From positions 372,001 through 436,000 of the forward strand of contig ML991780.1 of the NCBI GenBank assembly GCA_010094025.1: a stretch of 64,000 nt of DNA. The letters run 5' to 3'. The stretch comes from Viridothelium virens (Eukaryota > Ascomycota > Dothideomycetes > Trypetheliales > Trypetheliaceae). Position numbers and translations under genes: made by a program. The notes under the pieces are model-generated. The model was not told the DNA's origin. It searched no databases and saw nothing but the letters and a program-made list of their open reading frames with translations. Shown piece by piece: positions 1 through 64,000 of the stretch (the first letter of the stretch is position 1; each line of letters begins with the position of its first letter).

Positions 1-3000
1 AGATCCTCAGTTGCAGTTTTTCGATTGTCTTGCAATACTCGTTCATGGGCTTCTTCCATATCTTGCGCATGTGCTCGATGAGACTCACGCAATTGATTCA
101 CCAGCTTAGCATGTTCTTCCGCCTGGGAATTAAGCAATTCCTTGCGAGCTACCTCGGCATCTGCAAGCTCTCTAGCTAGCCTCGACTCGAGATCAGCAAC
201 TGTGGATTTGTGCCTTTCATCCGTCTCGGTGGTCTGCTGGGCATGCTTTTCTTGGAAATTGGCCAAGATTTCCCCATGGCTGGATTTGGCGTCTACCAAG
301 CTTGCTTCTAAATCGGCAATTCTTCTTGTCATTCGATTGTCGAGGCTAGCAAGCTCAGACTTATGCGCAACTTCAGCTTCTAACATAAGGCGATTGTGTA
401 GATCTTTTGCCGTTGTCATTTCGGATTGATGAGACTCCTGTCCTGCTTTCATTGCGGCCTCGTGTTTCAGTCTGGCTTCTTCAAGTTCTTTACGTTTCCT
501 TGACTGAACATCAGACAGCTCGTGGGCTTGTCGGTCTTTTAGCTCTCTCATGGCAACGCGTTGGGATTCTTCAACTTCTTTCACACGTCTCGCATGATCA
601 GCCTTCAATTCTTCTGCCTTTCGAGTTCCCATGTCCTTGACGTTTTCAGCTTCGCGCTTCCAGATCCTTTCGAGCTCCTTTCGCTCTTCAGCGCAACGTG
701 TTTCGACCGTTCGAAGTGATTGCTCAGAATCCTTAATTTGTCGCTGATGCTTATCTTTGAGCTCTTGCATTTCTTTGCGCTTAGTCGACTCTGCATCCGC
801 AAGCTTGAAAGCCATGTGATCCTCTAAATCCTTCAGTGCGGACCGATGAGAGAATTCTGCCTCTCGAAGTCTTTGCTGGCTATCTCCCCAATTCGTTCTG
901 AGCTCTTCGAGTTCCGAATCGTGCTTTTTTTGTATCTCTTGTAACTTTCTCCAATGCATATTCTTCGCCTCGCCAAGATGGTTCTGCAACGTCGCAGTTT
1001 CCTGGTGCGCCTCCTCCAATGATGTTGCATGTGCTTGTTCCGTGTTCTTGAGCCGTTGCCGTAGACTCTGCTCGATCCCTGCGGCTCGAGAGCGCTCTTC
1101 CTCGGCCGCTCGATTGCTCCGTTCCAGATCCTGGCGACGCGTTTGTTGAATTTCGTCGATCATCTTTTGAAGACCATCCGCTTGGTCGTAAGCTTCCCGT
1201 CGTTCCTGCTCTATAGAGGCGACTTGTCGAGAATGAGCCCCTTCGGCGTCACGAAATCCAGATTTTTCTTTTTCCAACTGTTTTTCGAATTGTGTAATCC
1301 GGCTATCAAGCGCCTTCTTGACATCTTCATGACTCAGATTTACATCTGCAATCTGCCGAATGGATTCATCACGCTCACGCTCCAAGCTTTGAACTCGTTC
1401 GGAATGGATTCGCTCAGCTTCCGAGAATTTAGAAGCCTCCTCATTCAAACGGGTCAAATTTTCTTGATGCTTGATATCAGCAGTATGCCTCGACTCTTCC
1501 AGGGCGGCTTCGAGACCCACAAGTTTGCTCATAGCATTCGCAAGTTCTTGGTCGAGGGTATTAAGGCGTTGCTTATGAAGTCCTTCTGCCTCTGTCACGT
1601 CCCGCTGGTGGTCGCTTTCCGCTTTGGCAAACTTGGACTGGCTTTCTTTCAGTTGACTCTCCAGTTCTTCGACACGACTTTCCATTGACTGGAGCGACTG
1701 GCTGGATGCATTATGTAAAGCCTTGTAATCGTCTCTCATCGCTTGAAGCTGCTGGGAGGTAGTTTCATGTGCTTTTTCGGTGTCCACAACTCTATTACGC
1801 TCTGTTGAGAGATCCTCCAAGGCTTTGTCATGGGCTTCAATTGCTTCTGTAGCCTTTGAACGGCTTTCGTCCGCCCGATGTTCGAGGTCCTTAAGGCGAA
1901 CTTCTAATTCTTGCTTGGATCGTTTGAAAGACTGTTCAAGATTTGCTAGCTGGCGTTCTTTCTCCTCCAATTGCTTCGATGCCACGCGGTGTGCTTCATC
2001 CGCTTTCGACACGCTCGAGCGCTCTGCAGCAAGATCGTTGAGCATCTGTTCGCGGTCTCGTTCCAAATCGGCCATCTTTGAGCGGCTTTGGTTGATTTCG
2101 CTCTCGAGCTCATCACTACGGGTCTCCAACTGTTCCTTCAATTTGGTTTCAGAATGTTGGAGATGCTTGATTTGCTCCTCAGCTTCTCGTAGCCGATCAG
2201 CCTTTACTTGATCAGCTTTCTCGATGGCTGCAAGCTTGGAGCGCTCCGCAGCCAGATCCTTGAGTGCCTGTCCGAATTGGTCCTCGTGTAGCTGCCTTAG
2301 TTGGTCTGATGATGTCTGGAGATCTTCGAGGCGAGATCCTAGAACGTCACGCTCTTCCTTCACTTTTTCGTAATAGTCTTGCAGTTCCGTAGAATTTGAC
2401 TGCTCGTTCTTGAGCTGGGTTTGCAGGTCCTGAACATCGCGCTCGTGTGTCCCAAGAGCCTCTTGGAGATTCTCAATTTGCTGTTTCGCATCAGCACCCT
2501 CGTTACTTGCAGTGTTGTGAGCGTTCTCGAGTTCCACGAGGGTTGACTGCTCCGTCTTCAGCTGATCTTGCAAGGAGCGAATTCCGTCCCGTTGCCTTTC
2601 AAAAGACTCTTGTGCATCGCTCAGTTGACCGCGTACTATAGTCAACTCGTCCGTTGTCTCAGCAAGGGCGTTCTCTGTTTCCGTCTGCTTTAGACATTCA
2701 TTATGCAACTGCTTCTGCAGAACCTGGTTCTCGCCCTCGTACCTGTTCTTGATCTCCGAGATCTCATGCTCAAGCTGCACTTTCGCAGAACTGTGCTCCT
2801 CTTTCGCCTGAGTATATGCGCTCTCAAGGTCTGCGTGTTTCGTGCGTGCGTTCTCCAGCTTTTCCTGCATGGTTTGAGTCTCGTCTTCGTGCTTCTGTCT
2901 CAGCCGAGAAAGCTGAAACTCATGGCTTTGCTGAGTTTCCTCAGACGCCTTTTTCCAATTTTCCTCAGCAGTCGCGTGATCGGATATCACTTGAGCATGT

Positions 3001-4586
3001 TCTGCCGTTGTAGTTTCTGAAATAGTTCGAAGACTCTCGAGTTCATCTCTAGTAGCCTGTAAAGCAGCCTTGGACTCCTCGGCCTCCTGCTTCGTAGCTG
3101 ACAGGGAAGATCGTACCTCTTTCAAGGTGTCTTCAAGATTGTGACTTTGTTTAATATAGGTGATCCGCACTCCTTCTAAAGCATCCCGAGCCGTTCGTGC
3201 CTCCTTTTCCCTCTTCGACAATTGACTATCAAGCTCTCGAAGATTTCCCTCAAGTCCCTCTCTCTGCTTTTGATACTCTGAATGAGCACGACGCAAGTCC
3301 TCCTGCAGAGTCGTGATATTCCCGTCTTTCTCCAATTGCAGAGTCTTCAAATCATTGAGCTCCGTTCGCACGGCTTCCGACGCGTTGAGGGCCTCCGCAG
3401 CATCTTGTCGGGCTTTCTCGAGTGATTCGTTAGCATCTTTCAGACTTCGCCGTTGTGAATCTTTTTCCGAGTCATGCGTTGCCTGGAGCTTTTGTATTCC
3501 CTCCTTTGCTGTCAAAAGTTCCCGATCCTTTTGGAGTAGGGAAGCTTCAAGATGTTGTGCTTTTGTGTGTACCTCCTGGTTACGTTCGCCAAGTTCTTTG
3601 AGTTCCCTGTTCCTCGAATCTGCTAGTTTCTTTATTTCTTCGAGATAGACACGAGTTTCGTCACGCTCGTTTGTGATACATTCTAAAGTACCTTGTTGAT
3701 CGCCCATCTGCTTTTGCCCCTCATGCAATTGTGACTCTAGGCCCTGCGTCCTCTTTTCGAGCTCACCATGTGCTTGGGTGAGCTTGTCAAGTTCTTTGGC
3801 TCTCGAAGAAGCTTCTTCAAGCGAGTTACGAAGCTCGTTAAGTTCATGCTCGTGCTCGGCTCGTTCATCTTGCATTGCACTGGTCGCTTCCCTTATTTCC
3901 TGCGTCTTCATGGAAAGAGATTCCTTGATCTCTTCGACAGTTTGCTCAAGTCGCTGGTTCTTCTCCATGAGCGCCTGTAGACCTTTGTTCTTGGCCGTTG
4001 CGTCTGCCAATAGACGATCAAGCTTTTCTACCTGTTGCCTCGTCTCAGATAGAGCGCCGGAAGTCTCGTCGTGTTCGATCCGAGCTTGATGTAACTCAGC
4101 TCTTGTCTGTTCGAGTGTCTCAGAGAGGTGCGAATGTTTTTGATCACTCTCCTCAAGCATGGATCGGAGGTCCCCCACTGACTTGGAAAGCTCTCCTCTC
4201 TCATCATCGAGATGATCAATCCTTTCTTCGGCAAATTCGAGAGCTTCTTCATTGCGACGTCTGATTTCCTTGAGCTCTCTCTGGAAATTATCTTCGTCGG
4301 ACCATCGTCCGCGTTCAACGCCTTCCTCACCAGCTGACGGTAAGTCATCAACGTCTTCTACAGAGGAATCTCTTCTAGCTTGTTGTTGTTTGTAGCTTTG
4401 CTTCAGAGCGTCTAGTTCACGAAGGATCTGGGAATGGCCGGTTGTCAATCCACGGGAGCGGCGAAAGATCTGATGACTGAATCCTTCGTTCGTACCCGAG
4501 TATGAGAGTGAGATCAATTCCTTGATGTGCTCAACCTGATCAGTTAAAGATAGGTCCTTGGAAGGACCGGGGCTAGAACTCTCCAT
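1..4586 (-). CDS. Giant coiled-coil protein, N-terminal 1528 residues (partial)
   Basis: One uninterrupted minus-strand frame runs from an ATG at 4586 to the left edge, so the C-terminus and stop lie outside the window. The first 60 or so residues are Ser-rich and not coiled. A short acidic/basic linker follows (around 75-100), and then the rest is almost pure heptad-like sequence rich in Glu, Lys, Gln, Leu, Ala and Asp. Degenerate repeats such as 'DLAAERS' and 'AEVAHKSEL' recur, and no enzymatic motif is visible. The composition suggests a long rod of the golgin, tether or spindle-pole scaffold type, but I recognise no specific family. The start is the first ATG after an untranslatable stretch and gives the N-terminus 'MESSSPGPSKDLSLTDQ'. 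Large numbers of antisense frames here are by-products of the Glu/Lys-rich codon use. I am sure it is coding and unsure of its function. Confidence 0.88.
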   Translation of the reverse strand, partial: MESSSPGPSKDLSLTDQVEHIKELISLSYSGTNEGFSHQIFRRSRGLTTGHSQILRELDALKQSYKQQQARRDSSVEDVDDLPSAGEEGVERGRWSDEDNFQRELKEIRRRNEEALEFAEERIDHLDDERGELSKSVGDLRSMLEESDQKHSHLSETLEQTRAELHQARIEHDETSGALSETRQQVEKLDRLLADATAKNKGLQALMEKNQRLEQTVEEIKESLSMKTQEIREATSAMQDERAEHEHELNELRNSLEEASSRAKELDKLTQAHGELEKRTQGLESQLHEGQKQMGDQQGTLECITNERDETRVYLEEIKKLADSRNRELKELGERNQEVHTKAQHLEASLLQKDRELLTAKEGIQKLQATHDSEKDSQRRSLKDANESLEKARQDAAEALNASEAVRTELNDLKTLQLEKDGNITTLQEDLRRAHSEYQKQREGLEGNLRELDSQLSKREKEARTARDALEGVRITYIKQSHNLEDTLKEVRSSLSATKQEAEESKAALQATRDELESLRTISETTTAEHAQVISDHATAEENWKKASEETQQSHEFQLSRLRQKHEDETQTMQEKLENARTKHADLESAYTQAKEEHSSAKVQLEHEISEIKNRYEGENQVLQKQLHNECLKQTETENALAETTDELTIVRGQLSDAQESFERQRDGIRSLQDQLKTEQSTLVELENAHNTASNEGADAKQQIENLQEALGTHERDVQDLQTQLKNEQSNSTELQDYYEKVKEERDVLGSRLEDLQTSSDQLRQLHEDQFGQALKDLAAERSKLAAIEKADQVKADRLREAEEQIKHLQHSETKLKEQLETRSDELESEINQSRSKMADLERDREQMLNDLAAERSSVSKADEAHRVASKQLEEKERQLANLEQSFKRSKQELEVRLKDLEHRADESRSKATEAIEAHDKALEDLSTERNRVVDTEKAHETTSQQLQAMRDDYKALHNASSQSLQSMESRVEELESQLKESQSKFAKAESDHQRDVTEAEGLHKQRLNTLDQELANAMSKLVGLEAALEESRHTADIKHQENLTRLNEEASKFSEAERIHSERVQSLERERDESIRQIADVNLSHEDVKKALDSRITQFEKQLEKEKSGFRDAEGAHSRQVASIEQERREAYDQADGLQKMIDEIQQTRRQDLERSNRAAEEERSRAAGIEQSLRQRLKNTEQAHATSLEEAHQETATLQNHLGEAKNMHWRKLQEIQKKHDSELEELRTNWGDSQQRLREAEFSHRSALKDLEDHMAFKLADAESTKRKEMQELKDKHQRQIKDSEQSLRTVETRCAEERKELERIWKREAENVKDMGTRKAEELKADHARRVKEVEESQRVAMRELKDRQAHELSDVQSRKRKELEEARLKHEAAMKAGQESHQSEMTTAKDLHNRLMLEAEVAHKSELASLDNRMTRRIADLEASLVDAKSSHGEILANFQEKHAQQTTETDERHKSTVADLESRLARELADAEVARKELLNSQAEEHAKLVNQLRESHRAHAQDMEEAHERVLQDNRKTATED

Positions 4587-8621: not shown

Positions 8622-9608
8622 GTCGTTACATCTATCTTTACTTCCTGCTGGTTATACCATGTGTTTCGCCCATGGAACGCTCCATGTGCCGGATCTGAAG
8701 ACGCACATGCTTCGGAGATTCGAGGCGCACATATTTCACCGAACTTCAATCGCTGCGGAAGGGAGACTTCTCATCCTTGCTCTGAAATCGGCTAATCTCC
8801 TTCATCACGGAATTGGATTGGCTCAAAAGTAGATTGTGGCGAGCGGGTGTAAACTGGATTCTTCCTAGTAAAATTCATTACACGGTATTGGGTGTTCAAA
8901 ATTTATCATCATACGAACGGCCGGTGAAATATTGGAGTTCCATGAGACTATTTCCCAATAATTCTCCTTTTTTCCTCAGCACCTTCAGCAGCTGGCATAA
9001 TTTCGTACACATCAGTTGCAATGCACAACACCTCCCTCCATCTCACAGGAACCACGTCATCAGACCGTCGTTCTGCCTCCCTATGCATCCATTCACCTGT
9101 ACACAACTGAGATAGTCATCAGGCTATGCTAGGAAGAATCCACCAAGCTTGACAGTCTTGCGCTAAAACCTCTCTCTTCTTCCCTTGACTACATCTAAAT
9201 CCTTTTTCAAGAGAAAGTCGTGTCGTGACGGAGTTCCCCAGTATAGCTGCTCGCTGCTCACATAAGTGCAAACGCAACAGACTGGTAAACTTATCTATCC
9301 GAACTAGCTGTTTACTCCTGTGAGATCTGACACACGCTAGATTAGGCAGAACCTGCACGGATTGTTACACGCGTTCTCTCCTCAAAGCTACACAGTCTTG
9401 CTACCTACAAACTCCTGCTACCTACAAGCTCTTGCTTCCTATAGGCTCTTGCTACCTACAGCTCCTGCTACCTACAAGCTCTTGCTACCTACAAGCTCTT
9501 GCTACCTACAAGCTCTCCGCACAACTTCACCTATTGACTTCATTTGCTCTGACATTCTCTGGCTACCACACCACTTTCGCTCTAACTTGACCATCAAGAG
9601 CATCCATA
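8622..9608. other. Intergenic, no gene recognised
   Basis: 987 bases hold only short unrelated frames on both strands. The one structured element is the 17-bp tandem repeat listed at 9397-9514. Confidence 0.5.
9397..9514. repeat. 17-bp minisatellite, about seven copies
   Basis: Seven head-to-tail units of consensus CTTGCTACCTACAAGCT are visible. The last two are identical, copies 2 and 5 differ only by C for T at position 2, copy 3 is the most diverged and copy 4 lacks one base. There are no unique spacers, so this is a minisatellite and not a CRISPR array. It ends 95 bases before the start of the next gene and may sit in its 5' leader or promoter. Confidence 0.9.
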
Positions 9609-51464: not shown

Positions 51465-52564
51465 TCAAATCTCCACACTCTCCCCCTTCCCATCTACTGC
51501 CCCATCCCCCTCAACACCCTTCTGCACCACCTTCAAACTGAAATCCACATGCCGCACCCCTTGATGAATACTACTGCTACTTATCACATCCACATGCTCA
51601 CACGCATACGCCCCCACATTCTCCTCCGTCAACCCACCACTCACCTCCACGAGCACCTTCTCCCCCCACCTCTCCTTCAACTCCCTCGCCGCGACCGCCA
51701 CCTCCTCCGCCCCAAAATTATCCAGCATGACGACATCCGCGCCCGCCGCCGCCGCCGTCTGCGCCTCCGCCACGCTCTGACACTCGACCTCGATCTTGAC
51801 GCTGAAGCCGCCAGCCGCGCGAGCAGCCGCAATGGCAGCCGTGATGGCGGCGTCGGTGGTGGAGGCGGCGTGCGCCCCGCGGTGCGCCCAGATGTGGTTG
51901 TCCTTCAGCATCGTCATGCTGCTCAGCGAATGCCGGTGCGGGTCGCATCCGCCGACGAGCATCGCGTATTTCTCGGGCAGCCGGAACCCCGGGGTGGTTT
52001 TGCGCGTGCCGGCGAGGGTGTTGGGGTAGCCGGCGGTGCGGAGGAGGGTGAGGAGGTGGTTGGATCTGTGGGTGGGAAGAGGGGGTGGTTAGATGGGATG
52101 GGATGCGTAGGGTAGGGTGGGTGGTGGGGTGGGATGGGGTGGACTGGACTGGGGAGGGGAGGGGAGGGGAGGAGAGAAGCGTACTGTGTTGCGATGCCGG
52201 AACAGCGGGCGAGTACGTTGAGGCCTACGCGCTCGCCGAGGAGTATCTTTCGCGCGGGTCCGCGTACTGTAGCGACGTGTTTCTTGCCTTCGCCTGCGAT
52301 CAGCTCCCCCTCTTTCACTAACCACTCTACTTGACAGCCGAGCATTCGGAAGGTCTCGTTGAAGAAAGGTACGCCGGCGACGATTCCGCGCGATTTACAT
52401 AGGAGGCGGGCTTCTGCAGGTGTGTCGCCGACGACAAAGCCTCCAACGTCGAAAGCGGGTGTATCTTCGGTGAGCCAACTGGTAATGAGGGGCTCAAGAG
52501 TTGGAGGGAGGAGATGGGAAGGATCGCCGTGAGAAGGAGCGCCACCAGCCGGCGGCGATGGCAT
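51465..52564 (-). CDS. BNA6: Nicotinate-nucleotide pyrophosphorylase (quinolinate phosphoribosyltransferase)
   Basis: Two exons, 52564-52185 and 52065-51465, encode 326 residues. The family's signatures are all present: '[20 protein letters not shown]' (the join restores this), '[20 protein letters not shown]', '[19 protein letters not shown]', '[14 protein letters not shown]' and '[11 protein letters not shown]'. The enzyme joins quinolinate and phosphoribosyl pyrophosphate to make nicotinate mononucleotide, the last step of de novo NAD synthesis from tryptophan. The intron is 119 nt and unusually rich in C and T. The coding strand is also GC-rich for this window. Confidence 0.97.
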
Positions 52565-54649: not shown

Positions 54650-56326
54650 ATGTCGGGCATCTCCTTGCTCTGGGCTGCCCCAGAAGTCAATCCCATCAAC
54701 CACAAAGCTCGCTCCATTCCGGTATTAAATCCTTTCAATGTGTATGGCAGAGTCTGGTGGTTTGCCTGGTTTGGTTTCTTCATTGCGTTCTGGTCCTGGT
54801 AAGCCTCTCCCGTTGAGGAAATGGCGCCCAAAGCCTGCATATGCACGACCGTTGGTACTGACAAAGCTTGCTCTAGGTACGCGTTTCCTCCGCTGCTACA
54901 GGATGTAATTGCAAAGGACATTGGGTTAAACTCCACGCAACTTGCCAACTCAAACATCGTTGCTCTTCTGGCAACGTAAGTCAAACTCGTTCAACGCCTG
55001 ACCTCTTCATCAACTAATATCAGTAGTCTTCTTGTTCGTCTAGTAGCTGGCCCTTGTTGCGATCGATTTGGACCTCGGTACACATTTGCAGGATGTCTCC
55101 TCGCTGGAGCCATTCCTACCTTCTGTGCTGGAGGAGTGAAGAATCCCTCGGGTCTTTTGGCTTTGCGATTCTTCATTGGCATTCTGGGCGGCTCGTTCGT
55201 TCCATGCCAGGTCTGGACTACTGGATTCTTTGACAAGAATGTCGTGGGCACAGCCAACGCCTTGACTGGTGGATTTGGTAATGCAGGTGGCGGGGTGACA
55301 TACTTTGTCATGCCTGCAGTCTATCGATCCCTTGTCAAGAATGGCCTCACGAGCCATGTCGCATGGAGAGTATCCTTTGTCGTTCCCGGCATTCTCATCC
55401 TTGCCACTACCCTTTTCATGGTGCTGCTCTGTCCAGACACGCCCGTCGGAAAGTGGTCTGATCGTGTACAAGCCGCCGAGAGCAACCTACGTCAACACAC
55501 GGTTTCCGACGGTCCCGTCGTCGATGTTGCTGGGGAGCTCACCGCTGAAAAGAACAGATCCAATGCTGGCTCAGACTCCACCGAACGGGTCTCGGACGAA
55601 GAAAAGAAACTTGGAGAAACACGTGGCGTCTTCGACGATCACGAGATCCAGATGGGTGAGCAGCAAATGGTTGACATCGCTCGTGGCGAAGTCATCCAGA
55701 AGCCGTCAACCAAGGAGATGCTCCACGTTTTCGCGAGCGCCAGCACCTTCGTCACTGCTGCTTGCTATTTCTGCAGCTTCGGCTCCGAGCTCGCTATCAA
55801 CAGTATCCTTGGCAACTACTATGCCAAGAATTTCCCCAAATTAGGTCTTCAGAATCAAGGCAATTGGGCCGCTATGTTCGGTCTTCTCAATGTTGTCTGC
55901 CGTCCACTCGGTGGATTCATTGCCGATGTCGCATACCGCAGAACCGGAAGCGTTTGGGCCAAGAAGGTTCTCCTGCACACTTACGGTGTCATCTTTGGAG
56001 CCTTTCTTGTTGCCATTGGTGCCACGGACCCCCATAGTGAGAGCACTTTGTTTGGTCTCATCGCTGGTGCCGCCTTTTTTCTCGAGGGCGCCAACGGGCT
56101 GAACTACGCACTAGTACCTCATGTTCATCCATACGCGAATGGTGTCATTTCAGGCTTCACAGGCGCGTCGGGCAACTTTGGTGGTATCATCTTTGCCATC
56201 ATCTTCAGGTACAACGTCAAGAATTATGCGAGGAGCTTCTGGATCATCGGAGTCATCGCTATGGTGATGAATGTAGCCGTCTGCTGGATCAGGCCAGTGC
56301 CTAAGGGCCAGATTGGTGGGAGATAA
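54650..56326 (+). CDS. High-affinity nitrate/nitrite transporter, NRT2/CrnA type (MFS)
   Basis: Three exons, 54650-54798, 54877-54975 and 55024-56326, encode 516 residues. Twelve membrane helices are visible. The nitrate-porter signatures are '[17 protein letters not shown]' in helix 5 and '[17 protein letters not shown]' in helix 11, with '[10 protein letters not shown]' between helices 2 and 3. The large central cytosolic loop (about 195-300) is acidic and hydrophilic, as in fungal CrnA/NrtA, where it takes part in nitrogen-dependent regulation of the protein. Proton-driven nitrate uptake at the plasma membrane is the family role. The start at 54650 ('[15 protein letters not shown]') is preferred; an ATG at 54632 is an alternative. 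Nitrate and nitrite reductase genes, often adjacent, are not in this window. Confidence 0.95.
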
Positions 56327-56689: not shown

Positions 56690-57237
56690 TAAGCTGGTCG
56701 CAACAGTCAAAAGGAACCACTCGCCCTTCGGACTCGCAAACTCACGAATCTCTCCCACTCTCCCTCGTTCGTGGCTACTGGATGTTCCACGAAGGCAACA
56801 ACGGTTGCCACAGCTAAGGTACTGTCGCAGGCGTCAAACTTGATGGAGTCTACGTTTTCGCTGCCGCCCATAAGGTCACCTTCATTAAGGGATACACCTC
56901 TCTCGTCGGTGCTTTAGAGGGGCTGGGTCATGGCAAGCGGCCAAAGTGTGCTCTCGTCTGTCCATGGCCTGGGCATCAACCGCGTCCTCGAATTCGAAAT
57001 CGTCGCCCCTGATGGAGCCTTATGCATCGTCAACACCTGCCAAAATGCGAATCTCTTTTAGGCACTCCATGGCGGCGGCTGTGACACCTTCGGCGTCGTC
57101 TCTCGACCACGCACGAAGTAGAACCCGTCATGCGTCTCACCGTCGCTTACCTCAGTTTCACCCCGATACCCATCAACGCCCTTTCCTTCCTCTCCCTCTT
57201 GGTCAACGAGTCCCTCAACTGGGGCCCTGAGGGCTGA
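56690..57237 (+). pseudogene. N-terminal remnant of an FAD-linked, berberine-bridge-type oxidase
   Basis: Degenerate but clear similarity runs in order along the plus strand: a worn 'VKRNHSPFG' where the family has V-K-N-T-G-H, 'YWMFHEGNNGCHS', 'GTVAGVKLDGVYVFAAAHKV', 'GWVMASGQSVLSSVHGLGIN', 'RVLEFEIVAPDGALCIVN', 'ALHGGGCDTFGVVSR', and 'INALSFLSLLVNESLNWGPE'. The frame is interrupted by nonsense codons (one replaces the conserved Trp of 'LFWALRGGG' by TAG) and at least one frameshift. These enzymes bind FAD and oxidise secondary metabolites or sugars. Similarity stops at about 57237, just where the family reads 'GWGGY'. The other half is at 62340-62904. Confidence 0.82.
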
Positions 57238-60200
57238 CACTCCGTAAAGCCGAATTTGACACCGTAGGTTTGGAAGCGTCCTGCTGATTCGCTTCGATTT
57301 TGCGACGAAGAAGCCAAATCTTTTTCCAGCGCTCGATGAATATCACAGCCCGTTCCAAAGAATCTATATCCCACTGTTTCCCGAGTTCGGTAAGCCAACG
57401 CTTCCTTTTCATGACTTCTGACCCGACTTTCACGCTCTCAGGATCCTGGGCTCGCCAAGCCTTTTCATCAAATTTTGGGATGTGAAGATGCTTGTGGTCT
57501 TGGTGACAAGTGAGAACATCCAATTGGCCGGCTTTGAGCTTCTCGTAGCACTGCTGGTCAAATTGAGTTTCGAAACAATCCCTGCAGGTCCATATGTCGT
57601 CTGCATAGCTCCAATTCCGGTCACATCCTCCGTTGCAACTGAAGTAGGATTGTCCCTTCAATTTCGGAGGACGAGAATCGACAGGTATGGCTGCCGAGGA
57701 GACATCAGGAATTGTTCCTTGCTCAATGGTTGAATTAGGGTCATGGGAGGTATTTCCATCTAGCTCGTCGCCGTTTGCTAAATTTGAGGCTGTCTGCGCT
57801 TCGGAAGATGAATTCATGCTATCCTCAGTATATTTTGCGTCTGTCTTTGCGACCCTCTCCACTTTATCTTCCCTTAAAGGCTCCAAGAGAGACCAGGCAG
57901 CGAGAGCGTTGATATCATCGTCCAGGACGGGTAATATCAGCGCGAGCTGTTCATACCCCTCAGCAGCAGTTCTGTCTTCTTTGCCGAGATGTATCGCTTT
58001 GCGCACAAGTGGTCGAAGCACTTTGTGGGCTTTGTCATCATCTCCTGCTAGATGATAGCAACGGCCAAGGATCAATCGCACGTCTTTCCACCAAAAGCGT
58101 GCCGCCATGTCGGACGTATCGCTGCTCAATCCACTCAACCGGTCAAGGTGTAATTGCGATTCGGTGGGATTCCCGCGAGCCTGCATTGCCATAGTTCGTA
58201 GTGCGTGGGCCAGTTCTTTGACCGCGCTACGCCTAGTGAAACCGCTCCATTCTTTGTTCTCATCTTTCGTGATACGTATAATTGATTCCATTTCGTTAAG
58301 GCAAGAGCCTCGGATATCGAGAGGGCCGCAGAACCATCTCAGCCTCCATCGACAAAATCGCAGATGAAGGGAAGCACCAGACGCCTCCAAAGCCAAATTA
58401 TTTTCCCTTACACTGTCATACAATATATCCATCTCGCTGAACAACTGCAAGGTGTGAGCGAGCACGACCATGTGGTTATGCATGTCGCTGTACGGCTTCT
58501 GAAGTGTTTTCATAAGCCAACTTTGTCCATCTTGCATATTTCTGTTCAGTCTGTGCAGTATTTCCAGCGCATCGCTAATGCTACCCTGCTTATTTAATGC
58601 ACCAACGAGAGCACATACATGGTCTTCAGCCGTCTCGGAAAACGATTTGATCTCGAGCGCGTGATCGAAGGTGCGCCAGTACCACGTTGCTGCAGTGCTG
58701 AATTGCGCCAATCGCAAGTGGCAGTCGCCCATAGTCCCCACGAGGCTATCCCAGTAAGCCTTTTCATATTTTTCGTCTTTTCCAAGGAGAGAATCATGGC
58801 TGCTCATAATCGCTTCGAGTTGTTCGATACAGGCACGGTCTTCTCTCAAGCTATAAAGGATTGTTGCTCTGAGCATCTGGGCTTGCCATAGATTTTGATC
58901 GAACTTTACCGCTTGATCGCATCGAGCGCATGCAATTGCAAGGAATTCATCGCTGCGATGACGTTCAGCAAACATCTGCGACACGTTATAGACTGAGGCC
59001 ATGCGGAAATAAAACCAGGCATCGTCGGTTTGCCGTTGGAGCTCTGTAAGAGCCCATTTCTCCCAGTCTTGAATCTCCTGGACAGAGGCATCATCGTACG
59101 AGGAGGCCTGTGCGTAAAGATCGGCGTGTGGTCCTGCCTGTTCGAAATTATTTAGCGTCGAAAAGTAAGCCTGTTCCATTGCAATACCTTCTGAAAGTAG
59201 CCACGGAGCCAATAGACGACTCGCCACGGCCAATCATCGTCATCTTTGTACCAGCGCTGCAGTATACAGCGAGCTACGTGCTGGAGCACTTTTTCCTTTG
59301 CGACTTTGCCAGACGTAACTTCTGTAACCCATTCTATGTCAGTCGACACTGCAAGGATGCTCTTCCTCACATCCGGATCTTTCATCCAGTTGACAACAGT
59401 TTCGCAAAACACATTACCGTCACAGAACCAGTCTATCATGGACATGATTTCATCAGTATTAGCCCAAACATCGATCACAGTGTCTTCGCGAAGCATTCGA
59501 AATAGCCGTTGGCCGATGTTTTGCTTCAAGTTGGAGTCAACCTGATCTAAATTGACATCGACAATATGTTTGTCAAAGTATCTGCTCGCGTATTGGCGAA
59601 GCGCCTGGTGCTTTTCCGAATCATAAAAATCGCATACGGCTGTCACGCAGGCTTCGAGGACCCGTACTGCGTTCTCTTCGCTCGGGTCTAGGTGCACCAA
59701 GTCGATCTCTGCGTTTCGCTTCTCCTCAAAGAATCTTTTGAAATCGAACTTGTCGTAGATGTCAAGATCGCCAAAAACTCGCTGGAAATTGGTTTGCAGC
59801 ACTGCTTGGATCAGTCTGATCTCATCTTCTGACACAGTCAATCGCCTATCGTCAGATTCCCGAAGGGAGCGCTCGGCATCGGGCGCAAATCTGACTTCCT
59901 CGTCCTTACTGATATCGACCAAGCTGGAGCAGTTCTTCTTCAAATACTCGACCGGTTTGAGTAGTCCAGATTCTCCAAAGGTCATGGAAAGCGCAGAGCT
60001 CAATAAAGAGGCATCGGGAGGTGATCTTGCTGTTGCTATCCACATAAAAATAGTATTGAGCTGCTTGATGTACTGACCCCCCAGACGCTCGTTGAGTGCG
60101 TTAATCTCACGTTTTATAGCCTGCGCGCTGTCCTCGTCGACTCTATTTAAGACGTCCTCGACCTGCGTCAAATCGTCGCTAACCTCGATATCATAGAGTA

Positions 60201-62010
60201 TGCGATTGATGGTGTTGTAGTTGCCACGAGCTGCGGCAAGAAGCCGCTCTAGTATCTTTGCCCTCAAAGCTTCCTGCTCGGATGGAAGCATACCATGAAA
60301 GATCCTGATCATATCAAGACGACTAGTGACGAACTGCTTGATGTCTCCGTGTTGCTTGAGTTCCTCTGAGGGCGTGTTCTTCGACGGCAGTAGGTCGATT
60401 GAAGGAAGTGCCAGGTTAGGAATGCCTCGCATACTTTCGAAGCCTTCGCTATCACCGGTCAAGAAGAGTCGGATACGGAGATCCTCTGAATTATTTTGTC
60501 TTGACATTATTGAATCAACCACATCCCGAAGCGGTCCTCTGTCGTCGGGGTCAAGACGGTTGACTCCATCCAAAACGATAAAGAATGTGACACCAGGTCG
60601 CTTTTTAGAATAATCAGCAACTAGCTGCTTCCAAATAACTGATGTATCTTGATGGTCGGTCATATTGTATCCTTTGCAGACTGCATGCAGAAATTGCAAG
60701 TATGCTTGGTCCTTTGCAAGTTGCCAGATAAGGTAGCGGAAAGCTTGGTTGACAGCATTGCGCTTTGGCTCTTTTGGGATATCGTACCATGCAACACGCA
60801 TATTGAGTTGTTTCGCTTCACTTCGGCTCTCACCGTTTAAGTAGTCAACAACCGCATGGCTGAGATAGCTTTTACCATAACCCTCGGGTCCTTGGATGCT
60901 GAACACATTATATGTATTGTCTGTTGATTTACAGATACGGACGTCTTTCCAATGCTGGAAGTCATTGTACTCGAAGAGCCATTGCCCAGTGCCGGCCGTT
61001 CGATTGGAGAAGTCACCGTGAGTCTGCAGAACACTTTCCATCTCTCCCGATTTAATGTTGAGGGCGTTCATAACGGTATTCTTGGTCTTGTTGTCGCCAT
61101 CACTGATTCGTAGCTGCTCCAACGTCGTACTGTTTTGCCCTTGTATTACAGAGTTCTCTTGCAATAAAGCAACGCTTTCCTGCATGGTAGTATTCATGGC
61201 GTGCACTTCAATGCTCAAGCTACAAATCCTTCTAGCCGCGTCGCTCATGCCTCTATGAATCTCGTCAATCTGAACTTTGGATACTTCTGCGATCAGATTC
61301 TCAAACTTGGCCATCGCATCCTGAATGCCGCTGTCGTCACCAAAAGCTCCAACCTTAACAGCCACTTTCACCCTGGCTTTCATTGACTCGAATTTTCCTG
61401 TGAGACCGTGAGGTTCCTCAATTCCCCTCCAGCTATGTGTCAATTGGTAAGATTTGGCCATGATAGTAATGAAGTGCTCCAAGACTCGATAGACGCTGCG
61501 CCGCAGGTTTTTGTCCAACTTCACGTCGACATCCTTCTGGTCACAGTACATCCCAAGCCGCTCAAGGAACACACCGAGCCGGTCCATCAGCGCGGTCAAA
61601 TTATCAAAGACCGTTTGTGTTTCTTGTGAGACCTTTATCAGGAAGCTCACAGCATTAAACACCTGATTACTCGGACCAAAAACCTATGACAAAAGTGAGG
61701 ACCTTGTCCACAAATGTGCATCGGACTTGAAGAAACATACCACGCTCGCGCCTTGTGCAATCATGGAGCCGAAACTATCAATAAATTTAAGCGTTTTGCT
61801 AAAGATGGCCTTGGCCGTGGTTTTGGTAGCCGAGTCAGCCTTGGGTGGATTGATCATAGCAGTGATCTGTTCTATCGAAGGCGCTTGGCCCGGATCGAGA
61901 GGTATATTGAAGCTTGCCTCATTTCCTAGACGGGCCATGAGTTTATTCCATGCCTGCTCCAAGTCCTCTTCCTCCGAGAATGGGCTCGAGATCGTGGCTT
62001 CTGTAGCCAT
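57215..62010 (-). CDS. NLR-like STAND protein: Goodbye-like N-domain, NACHT, helical repeats, Cys/His-rich C-terminus
   Basis: Three exons on the minus strand (62010-61741, 61683-59188, 59137-57215) encode 1562 residues; phases fit, and joins restore 'GASVVFGPSNQVFNAVSFLI' and 'GYFQKAGPHADLYAQA'. Residues 15-330 follow the pattern of the Goodbye domain found at the start of fungal STAND proteins. The NACHT ATPase has Walker A 'GPEGYGKS' (355-362) and Walker B 'FFIVLDGVNRLD' (about 457-468). The middle part (about 900-1350) is helical with TPR-like spacing. Near 1420-1478 lies a cluster, 'YFSCNGGCDRNW', 'WTCRDCFE', 'QCYEKL', 'CHQDHKHLHIP', that looks zinc-binding. Such proteins act in self/non-self recognition and regulated cell death in fungi. 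The last seven codons and stop coincide with antisense oxidase sequence. Confidence 0.9.
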
Positions 62011-62339
62011 ATTGAGCGCGCGTTGCACCTACTGATCGACCAGAGCAGTGAAAGGGCCTTCCAGCAGCTTGAATAAAGGGACTGCGCAGGATGTTTGCAT
62101 GTCGTTAAGCATAGCAACAGATTCGCGACTGCCACACTTATATGTTATTCATAGTCAGGGACTGAGATACGCCATGCAGGAGCAGGGGCCATAAAGAGTC
62201 GTGAGTGGTGGCTTCCAGAGGCCGCGCATGCAGGCTGCACTGAAATTGGCGTATCTCCCGACGAACGAAGTTTCGAGAGCCCAGCAGCACCTGTAGAGAG
62301 GTATCTCTGCACCTAGCCAATTTCTGTCCCGAGCGAATG
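62011..62339. promoter_or_regulatory. Upstream region of the NLR gene, inside the inserted block
   Basis: About 330 bases lie between the NLR start and the point where oxidase similarity resumes. If the insertion model is right, this is the promoter that travelled with the NLR gene. No terminal repeat or target duplication was seen. Confidence 0.45.
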
Positions 62340-62904
62340 AAGTCGAACCCAAACCGCCACCGTTGGGACCAAGCGCTTCCCTATCACTCCCCTCGTCCCA
62401 CTCTCGCTCGTCGCCATCGCCATGGGTCGCGCGCGTCTGATGTCGTGTCTGACCGGCCTGGTCTCCGCAGGCCTGAGGCCGTGCTTCCCTGTCGTGGCGC
62501 CGAAGCTATGTCACCCGGAGACGGGGGCGAACGCGACGTCTGCGACTCCGGCGTGGAGGAAGGACTACCTTAGGTACAGGGAGCTGGGTGGAGCGGTGGG
62601 GTTGGCGTAGCATTCGTTGGCGGAGGAGAGGAGGACGGCCGCGGGGCAGCTGAAGAATTTGACGGCGGGGTTGCAAGCCTTGATGCCGGAGAGCGGGGCG
62701 TACATGAACGAGGCGAACCCGCGGACGGAGGGATGGCAGGAGCTATGGTGGGGTGAGGAGAATCATGCGAGGTTGGTAGAGGTGAAGAGGAGGTATCATC
62801 CAGTTGGGTTATTGTCGTGTTGGAAGTGTGTTGGGTTTGTGGGGTTTGTGGGGAGTTTGCGTGCCCGGAGGATTTGGCTCAGGGATAGCATTAGTACTAC
62901 TTAG
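62340..62904 (+). pseudogene. C-terminal remnant of the same FAD-linked oxidase
   Basis: In plus-strand order the sequence shows 'KRFPITPLVPLSLVAIA', 'SCLTGLVSAGLRPCFPVV', 'HPETGANATSATPAWRKDYL', 'LTAGLQALMPESGAYMNEAN', 'GWQELWWGEENHARLVEVK' and 'RYHPVGLLSCWKCVGF'. This is the characteristic C-terminal end of berberine-bridge-type oxidases, with the Tyr-x-Asn-Glu motif and the closing Cys-Trp-x-Cys-Val-Gly. A TAG stands where Trp is expected before 'HSLAEE'. The N-terminal half lies 5 kb upstream on the same strand. The central 100-200 residues of the enzyme are missing from both pieces. Confidence 0.82.
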
Positions 62905-63270
62905 GCATTGGTCGATCAAGTCAGGTGTACAGGAGAAAGTCATTGTTTGCAGACTCAGCACAATGAAATCGTTCTGATTAGGATTCATACGGAGACTATG
63001 GAGCATAACTACTCAGACTTATTGAAAGAAAGAGAGAAGTCCCGATCTAAGACATCGCAGACTCAAGAGGTAAAACGATACCATAGTCGGGAAAAGCGCC
63101 ACCCAAATGCAACCACGTTCTATGCCAAAAGCAATGGTGCTGCTTTTTGTAAATCCGTCTAGTCAGTGATGCCCACCCCTATCCCATCAAACAATCAACG
63201 CTGAAACGACGAACAATATGTCCACACAGCCTTGCCGAGCAGAAAAGGAGGGAAGTTTGGATGGAAAGAA
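62905..63270. other. Intergenic, no gene recognised
   Basis: 366 bases lie between the oxidase remnant and the stop of the last gene. Nothing was recognised. Confidence 0.45.
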
Positions 63271-64000
63271 TCAAGTCGTCACACCGTTCGTCTTTGTATC
63301 CTGCTGCTCACTGGCCTCGCCCTTCAACGTCCCGGCCTGAGCGCTTGCCCTCGCCTGTGGCTGCATCGCGAGCTGGGCTTTCTGCCGATCCAGCATCAGC
63401 TGTTGCTCCTGCGAAGTCTGATATGTGTGATAGCCACTCGGTCCAGTTGCCGAGTGTGCCTGGGCTGGTGCCGAAGTCGGGTTTGGAGTGCTAGGGCTAT
63501 TTCGCCTCCCCTTCGCAGGGAGCGCAGTGGACGATCCACCGTACGACGCTGGATATGACTGCCTGGAGCCGGTCGAAAACGCGGTGGCGGTTTTGTTATG
63601 GGGGGATGATGTTCGAGCGTAGGTTCCGCTCGTTGGAGTAGAATAAGAAGTAGGAACAGTGCCAGAAGGGCGAGGAGGATAACCGACACCGTTCTGAGGT
63701 CGGGCAATTGGGGTTGCAGTGTTATACTGTTGACTGTAATTATAGTTGCCTGAGCTTGGGCGTTGATGGAATCCCTGACCGTTCGGTATGCCACCATATG
63801 ATTGCTGCGCAGGACGTGACTGACTGTAAGAAGCCGTGTATGATGTGCGATTTGAGGAAGCCTGGGTTGGGGTGGTGTAGTTCTGGCTATTTCCCGAGGA
63901 AGGACGTTGAGAAAAGTTCATGGACGGAGAGCGGTTGGGTGGCTGTTGCTGTGGGTAATATCCCTGGTTGGCCTGCGCTGGCCGGCTGCTCGATTGTTGT
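63271..64000 (-). CDS. Gln/Ser/Pro/Tyr-rich protein, C-terminal part (partial)
   Basis: An open minus-strand frame runs from the right edge to a stop at 63271; at least 242 codons are in the window and the start lies outside. The sequence is low in complexity, with 'QRPSSGN' repeated at least twice and many Tyr, Gln, Ser, Pro and Thr residues. A more ordered end follows ('YHTYQTSQEQQLMLDRQKAQ', then 'LAMQPQARASAQAG'). That end resembles tails of fungal chromatin-remodelling subunits of the Ssr4 type, but the match is from memory and weak. Prion-like disorder is the safest description. Confidence 0.7.
   Translation of the reverse strand, partial: QQSSSRPAQANQGYYPQQQPPNRSPSMNFSQRPSSGNSQNYTTPTQASSNRTSYTASYSQSRPAQQSYGGIPNGQGFHQRPSSGNYNYSQQYNTATPIARPQNGVGYPPRPSGTVPTSYSTPTSGTYARTSSPHNKTATAFSTGSRQSYPASYGGSSTALPAKGRRNSPSTPNPTSAPAQAHSATGPSGYHTYQTSQEQQLMLDRQKAQLAMQPQARASAQAGTLKGEASEQQDTKTNGVTT

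What the first reader, a model, noticed from the sequence alone, without database searches (positions are those of the whole stretch)
56690..62904. An NLR gene sits inside a broken FAD-oxidase gene
Seen: plus-strand remnants of one berberine-bridge-type oxidase flank the antisense NLR gene, N-terminal part at 56690-57237 and C-terminal part at 62340-62904, in correct order and orientation. Between them lies 5.1 kb holding just one gene with its promoter. Inference: the NLR gene was inserted into the oxidase gene with loss of the oxidase centre. NLR repertoires of fungi are known to vary strongly between strains, so this may be a presence/absence locus caught at its insertion site.
Basis: partly seen in the sequence, partly recalled or inferred. 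Interest (0 to 1): 0.88.

Follow-up and report, generated by a model that had tools for sequence, protein, structure and literature searches.

The report
Immune-receptor gene inside decayed oxidase gene
In this fungal DNA an apparently intact immune-receptor-type gene lies between two decayed fragments of what looks like one old oxidase gene, most likely because it was inserted there, but only comparison with related strains could prove it.

Summary
A minus-strand fungal NLR gene with an open frame (CDS 62010-57215, two predicted introns, 1562 aa; Goodbye and NACHT-type domains) lies between two plus-strand pseudogene pieces of a berberine-bridge-type oxidase. Both pieces match the same two PDB chains and one bacterial protein in N-to-C order. 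With five reference oxidases these are the best places in the window (42-65 bits); 200 shuffled references reach at most 32.3 bits. Two corrections. The left piece is the middle of the FAD domain, not the N-terminus: about 110-160 N-terminal residues are also gone, so the oxidase decayed beyond what one insertion explains. And the NLR stop codon seems to lie about 22 bp inside the left piece, so its last codons would be antisense oxidase DNA; but the stretches next to the NLR have no database match, and the edges rest on reading frame and recalled similarity. No target duplication, terminal repeats or RIP signature was found. Insertion is the best reading (0.7). No fungal genomes were available, so the empty site and presence/absence between strains could not be tested.

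The parts
57215..62010 (-). NLR (STAND) gene, 1562 aa, predicted exons 62010-61741, 61683-59188, 59137-57215
   Evidence: open spliced frame with GT..AG introns; Goodbye PF17109 and NPHP3_N PF24883
61684..61740 (-). predicted intron 1 of the NLR gene, 57 bp
   Evidence: GTATGT..CATAG; Goodbye matches on both sides; no RNA data
59138..59187 (-). predicted intron 2 of the NLR gene, 50 bp
   Evidence: GTATTG..CAG, joins the two long frames; no RNA data
56696..57106 (+). oxidase pseudogene, left piece, middle of the FAD domain (not the N-terminus)
   Evidence: tblastn with 5 of 5 reference oxidases, best E 2.6e-13, two of them reaching 56696 and three starting at 56921; stops at 56915 and 57059 within the matched frame; PDB 6f72/6f74
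57107..57236 (+). presumed continuation of the left oxidase piece up to the left junction, in another frame
   Evidence: frame open to 57234; recalled family similarity only; no match
57215..57236 (.). presumed overlap: last NLR codons and stop within the oxidase piece
   Evidence: NLR stop at 57215-57217; oxidase frame to 57234
62011..62340 (.). NLR leader and presumed promoter; right junction here or at its end
   Evidence: no reference oxidase matches here; G+C 0.42 at 62100-62159, 0.55-0.58 at 62160-62339, 0.62-0.68 at 62340-62759
62341..62607 (+). presumed substrate-domain part of the right oxidase piece
   Evidence: open frame in phase with the BBE match, ended by a stop at 62608-62610; no match
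62611..62904 (+). oxidase pseudogene, right piece with BBE C-terminal domain
   Evidence: PF08031 31.1 bits, cut-off 20.6; PDB 6f74 E 3e-05; 4 of 5 references

Best explanation
A segment of about 5 kb carrying an NLR gene was inserted, antisense, into a berberine-bridge-type oxidase gene or its pseudogene next to a nitrate-transporter-like gene. Shown: an open NLR frame between two decayed, collinear, same-strand pieces of BBE-type oxidase. Inferred: that the pieces were one gene; that the segment arrived after the oxidase existed; that the left edge lies near 57236, so that the segment was cut close to the NLR's 3' end and the frame now stops in antisense oxidase DNA; that the joining was by break repair or ectopic recombination rather than by a DNA transposon with target duplication. 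The NLR itself would work as other fungal NLRs are thought to: its C-terminal sensor region and NACHT module control oligomerisation of an N-terminal Goodbye-type effector domain in non-self recognition and cell death (family knowledge, not tested here).
For: Both pieces match the same PDB chains and the same bacterial protein in correct order. The three references picked through the right piece all match the left piece too; of the two picked through the left piece one (Caballeronia, also among the right-piece hits) matches the right. With these five references no oxidase stretch is strongly matched twice and no third place scores above 26.9 bits. Both pieces are richer in G+C (0.56, 0.62) than the NLR (0.48). 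The NLR frame is intact while both oxidase pieces carry disablements. The NLR stop lies inside the presumed oxidase piece.
Against: No empty site was seen. No target duplication or terminal repeats. About 110-160 N-terminal residues of the oxidase are missing as well, so deletions unrelated to the insertion happened. The pieces may differ in decay (2 to 4 disablements left, 1 right; for 4 against 1 binomial p 0.21), not significant, but it would fit two genes. The stretches next to the NLR have no database match, and neither has the part of the left piece that I read in a second frame, 56818-56913.
Confidence: 0.7

Rival explanations
1. Two neighbouring oxidase genes, one on each side of an older NLR gene, decayed separately; the left one kept its middle and the right one its C-terminal part.
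For: Left and right pieces may differ in number of disablements (2 to 4 against 1) and somewhat in G+C (0.56 and 0.62); the left piece has also lost its N-terminal part.
Against: Needs same strand, N-to-C order and non-overlapping remains by coincidence; with the five references no oxidase stretch is strongly matched twice.
Confidence: 0.15
2. The oxidase was already a shrunken pseudogene, and the NLR came with a larger rearrangement (translocation or ectopic gene conversion) of which the present junctions are only the worn remains; the centre was lost by ordinary deletion.
For: N-terminal loss outside the NLR segment; the unaccounted 60-100 residues may be decayed within 62011-62340; no sharp insertion signs.
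Against: The composition profile and the flanking genes seen (24 of 46 long frames scanned) show nothing that looks like a larger foreign block; synteny could not be tested.
Confidence: 0.12
3. Assembly artefact that joins unrelated contigs.
For: No positive evidence from any call; cannot be excluded without reads.
Against: Would need two false joins, both inside one oxidase family in correct order.
Confidence: 0.03

Closest known systems
Fungal NLR (STAND) proteins with a Goodbye-like N-terminal domain and NACHT (PMC4986451: abstract, passages and section 15 seen; PMC12258605: abstract, passages and section 14 seen)
   Same: Goodbye domain, NACHT-type NTPase and a long C-terminal region with near-cut-off TPR matches; a C-terminal Cys/His-rich stretch that looks to me like a ZZ finger, a domain which PMC12258605 section 14 reports for 17 Sordariales NLRs
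   Different: TPR matches are below Pfam's cut-offs, and the ZZ resemblance is by eye only, without a match
Strain-variable fungal NLR genes (PMC4986451 section 15: some polymorphism of the NLR complement in all 15 species compared; PMC10990425, one passage: NACHT and NB-ARC domains taken together enriched among lineage-differentiating variable genes of Magnaporthe oryzae)
   Same: an NLR at what looks like an insertion site
   Different: variation between strains not tested for this gene
VAO/BBE-type flavoprotein oxidases such as MtVAO615 (PDB 6f72) and PDB 6f74
   Same: FAD-domain and BBE C-terminal similarity
   Different: here broken: stops, frame changes, and no N-terminal part with the FAD-linking His motif
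NLR as Starship cargo (PMC12134995, passages: one putative NLR on one Gaeumannomyces element)
   Same: an NLR that could move with a mobile element
   Different: no Starship part seen among the frames scanned; here a single gene

Membership tests
fungal NLR | N-terminal effector domain | tested here: met
   PF17109 Goodbye, 41.2 bits in exon 2 and 24.2 bits in exon 1 given with intron 1 (cut-off 24.8)
fungal NLR | NACHT or NB-ARC NTPase with Walker motifs | tested here: met
   PF24883 NPHP3_N 70.8 bits, cut-off 24.8; GPEGYGKS and FFIVLDG read by eye, motifs recalled
fungal NLR | C-terminal repeats (TPR, ANK, WD or HEAT) | tested here: inconclusive
   TPR_14 22.7 bits (cut-off 23.5), TPR_19 21.2 (cut-off 25); single-sequence model mostly helical but mean pLDDT 42.1
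fungal NLR | non-self recognition or cell death | not testable with these tools
   needs the organism
BBE/VAO-type oxidase (as pseudogene) | BBE C-terminal domain | tested here: met
   PF08031 31.1 bits, cut-off 20.6
BBE/VAO-type oxidase (as pseudogene) | FAD-binding domain | tested here: inconclusive
   no Pfam hit for the three short left pieces given, but matches to 5 of 5 reference oxidases and to PDB 6f72/6f74
BBE/VAO-type oxidase (as pseudogene) | R/KxxGH motif with FAD-linking His (motif from a passage of PMC8752850) | tested here: not met
   tblastn matches begin after this motif in Caballeronia and Paraburkholderia and later still in Polymorphobacter and Pararhizobium; not recognised by eye upstream of 56696
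DNA-transposon insertion | target-site duplication at the junctions | tested here: not met
   no shared direct word of 7 or more bases between 57205-57265 and 62010-62400; three of 6 bases, 5.7 expected; edges uncertain
DNA-transposon insertion | terminal inverted repeats | tested here: not met
   none of the 3 inverted pairs frames the segment; one search shows inverted matches of 7 bases at most
presence/absence NLR locus | empty allele in relatives | not testable with these tools
   no genome held for the window and no fungal collection offered

The most novel reading that the evidence does not exclude
An NLR gene without its own 3' end, and perhaps without much of its own promoter, was captured by a dying oxidase gene: its stop codon, and possibly part of its control region, are antisense oxidase DNA, and the site is a young presence/absence (idiomorph-like) locus of non-self recognition.
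Probability: 0.25. Interest if true: 0.6.

Novelty: new member of a known kind. Interest (0 to 1): 0.42.

Why it matters
Fungal NLR repertoires are known to turn over fast. The lists returned by my paper searches (open papers only, 10 to 15 titles listed at most, listing 12 of 303, 12 of 28 and 12 of 33) showed no paper about an NLR caught inside a broken gene. If relatives carry the intact oxidase, this site would give exact junctions and so show how a single NLR gene moves. If not, it is an ordinary NLR beside old pseudogene pieces.

Tried and rejected
RIP as cause of the oxidase decay: rejected, no 500-base window (step 250) in the 64 kb reaches the thresholds used (product index over 1.1 and substrate index under 0.75). 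A lower RIP substrate index in both oxidase pieces (1.06, 0.97) than in the NLR (1.39) is not special to them: windows at 63251-64000 have 1.16 and 1.10; I do not use it. Target duplication or terminal repeats: none; the 16-bp direct repeat 56753/62396 lies inside the pieces, about 470 bp before the left junction, and is taken as chance. Mobile element near by: 24 of the 46 stop-to-stop frames of 170 aa or more were scanned with Pfam (4, 10 each); none gave a transposase or recombinase; the other 22 were not scanned. Relatives of the NLR: none in viral contigs or genome contigs; of the oxidase right piece none in viral contigs or genome contigs. Support for single oxidase stretches: none for 57115-57234, 62341-62607 and 56818-56913 (and, where shuffles reached or beat the score in 105 to 497 of 500 trials); only the first left stretch, 56696-56824, beat shuffles (reached by 0, 0, 9 and 4 of 500 against four of the five references). 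ZZ finger: no match. Structure model of exon 3: mean pLDDT 42.1, not used. Simple inversion as cause: rejected, it would turn one piece round.

Full report
What is there. The window is fungal by its genes: a RecQ-type helicase, an XPG-type nuclease, a TCP-1 chaperonin, NOP56, GAA1, Pkr1 and a Goodbye-domain NLR, with long exons; I take it for a filamentous ascomycete (inference, not tested). No whole genome is held for it. At 54980-56326 on the plus strand lies a nitrate-transporter-like frame (TIGR00886, 306.5 bits, just under its cut-off of 311.7). After it come the left oxidase piece, the NLR and the right oxidase piece.

The NLR. On the minus strand three predicted exons (62010-61741, 61683-59188, 59137-57215) with introns of 57 and 50 bp give an open frame of 1562 aa. 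Intron 1 falls in a Goodbye domain, which Pfam finds on both sides of it (24.2 bits in exon 1, just under the cut-off, and 41.2 bits in exon 2); the NTPase matches NPHP3_N with 70.8 bits; TPR matches are just under the cut-offs. Walker A (GPEGYGKS) and a Walker-B-like stretch (FFIVLDG) are read by eye. The C-terminal Cys/His-rich stretch looks like a ZZ finger to me, but neither Pfam nor the PDB sequences support it. ZZ fingers are reported for 17 Sordariales NLRs (PMC12258605, section 14). The frame shows no sign of decay.

The oxidase pieces. The right piece carries the BBE domain (PF08031, 2.4e-07) and matches PDB 6f74 and 6f72. The left piece matches the same two chains at residues 251-284 and 234-275 (E 0.0089 and 0.0046); Pfam found nothing in the three short left pieces given. 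With five bacterial oxidases as references (two picked through the left piece, three through the right), tblastn against the whole window puts its best hits at just these two places: left with 5 of 5 (42.4-64.7 bits), right with 4 of 5 (42.0-50.4 bits); Nocardia's protein gave no right-hand match among the 60 rows shown. The next best place, 51657-51965 on the minus strand, scores 26.9 bits with E 0.096. The best of 200 shuffled references scores 32.3 bits. So the pieces are real, and the Caballeronia protein holds both in one chain, residues 162-297 and 534-603.

The left piece is not N-terminal. In the two references whose match reaches 56696, 110 (Paraburkholderia) and 161 (Caballeronia) residues come before it, among them the R/KxxGH motif whose His links FAD (motif as given in a passage of PMC8752850). 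The 369 bp between the transporter frame's stop and 56696 gave no match to them that stands out. The oxidase thus lost more than one insertion explains. The centre: from the match ends, plus the open frames that run on toward the NLR, I reckon about 60, 75 and 98 missing residues by 6f72, 6f74 and Caballeronia (arithmetic). The 330 bp between the NLR start codon and 62341 could hold that much in decayed form. So a loss of the centre is possible but not shown.

The junctions. By reading frame and recalled family similarity the left piece runs to about 57236 (frame open to 57234), and the right piece begins near 62341. Neither stretch next to the NLR has a database match, so the edges are soft. 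If the left edge is right, the NLR stop at 57215-57217 lies within the oxidase piece, 22 bp from its edge, and the last codons of the NLR are antisense oxidase sequence. G+C is 0.42 at 62100-62159, 0.55-0.58 at 62160-62339 and 0.62-0.68 at 62340-62759. No direct word of 7 or more bases is shared between the two junction regions, and no repeat found frames the segment.

Decay. In the frame that tblastn follows, the left piece has two stops, at 56915 and 57059. By hand I read it instead as three frame changes and one stop, but the stretch in the second frame (56818-56913) has no support. The right piece has one stop, at 62608. Thus 2 to 4 disablements left against 1 right on about equal lengths; for 4 against 1, p is 0.21. 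There is no RIP signature at the thresholds used.

Reading. One gene split by an NLR-bearing segment is the simplest account (0.7). Two separate decayed oxidases (0.15) need several coincidences. A worn, larger rearrangement (0.12) is also possible. How the segment came is open; break repair or ectopic recombination fits best, since transposon signs are missing.

What is known. In all 15 fungal species compared, the NLR complement shows some polymorphism between strains (PMC4986451, section 15). NACHT and NB-ARC domains together are enriched among lineage-differentiating variable genes of Magnaporthe oryzae (passage of PMC10990425). One putative NLR has been seen as Starship cargo in Gaeumannomyces (passage of PMC12134995). 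At the het-v locus of Podospora anserina a region of about 12 kb with five genes is replaced by transposable elements in the other type (passages of PMC9262711). An NLR within a broken oxidase did not show in the lists of my searches, which cover open papers and listed at most 15 titles each. The finding is thus a plausible new example of a known kind of variation, with one notable detail, the borrowed stop codon, that awaits proof.

Noticed in passing
62112-62029: In frame with and just upstream of the NLR start codon (62010) lies a short open stretch of 27 codons with its own ATG, ended by a stop 7 codons before the NLR ATG; a possible upstream ORF or lost N-terminal extension.
   Followed up: no
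1-4000: Steady strong AT skew of -0.30 to -0.34 over 4 kb, stronger than in any other 1-kb bin of the window.
   Followed up: no
9388-9516: Tandem array of a 17-bp unit, about 7 copies, in a bin with GC skew -0.255.
   Followed up: no
56753-56768 and 62396-62411: 16-bp direct repeat, 94% alike, one copy in each oxidase piece; probably chance.
   Followed up: partly
54980-56326: Nitrate/nitrite-transporter-like frame of the NarK type directly upstream of the oxidase remnant.
   Followed up: partly
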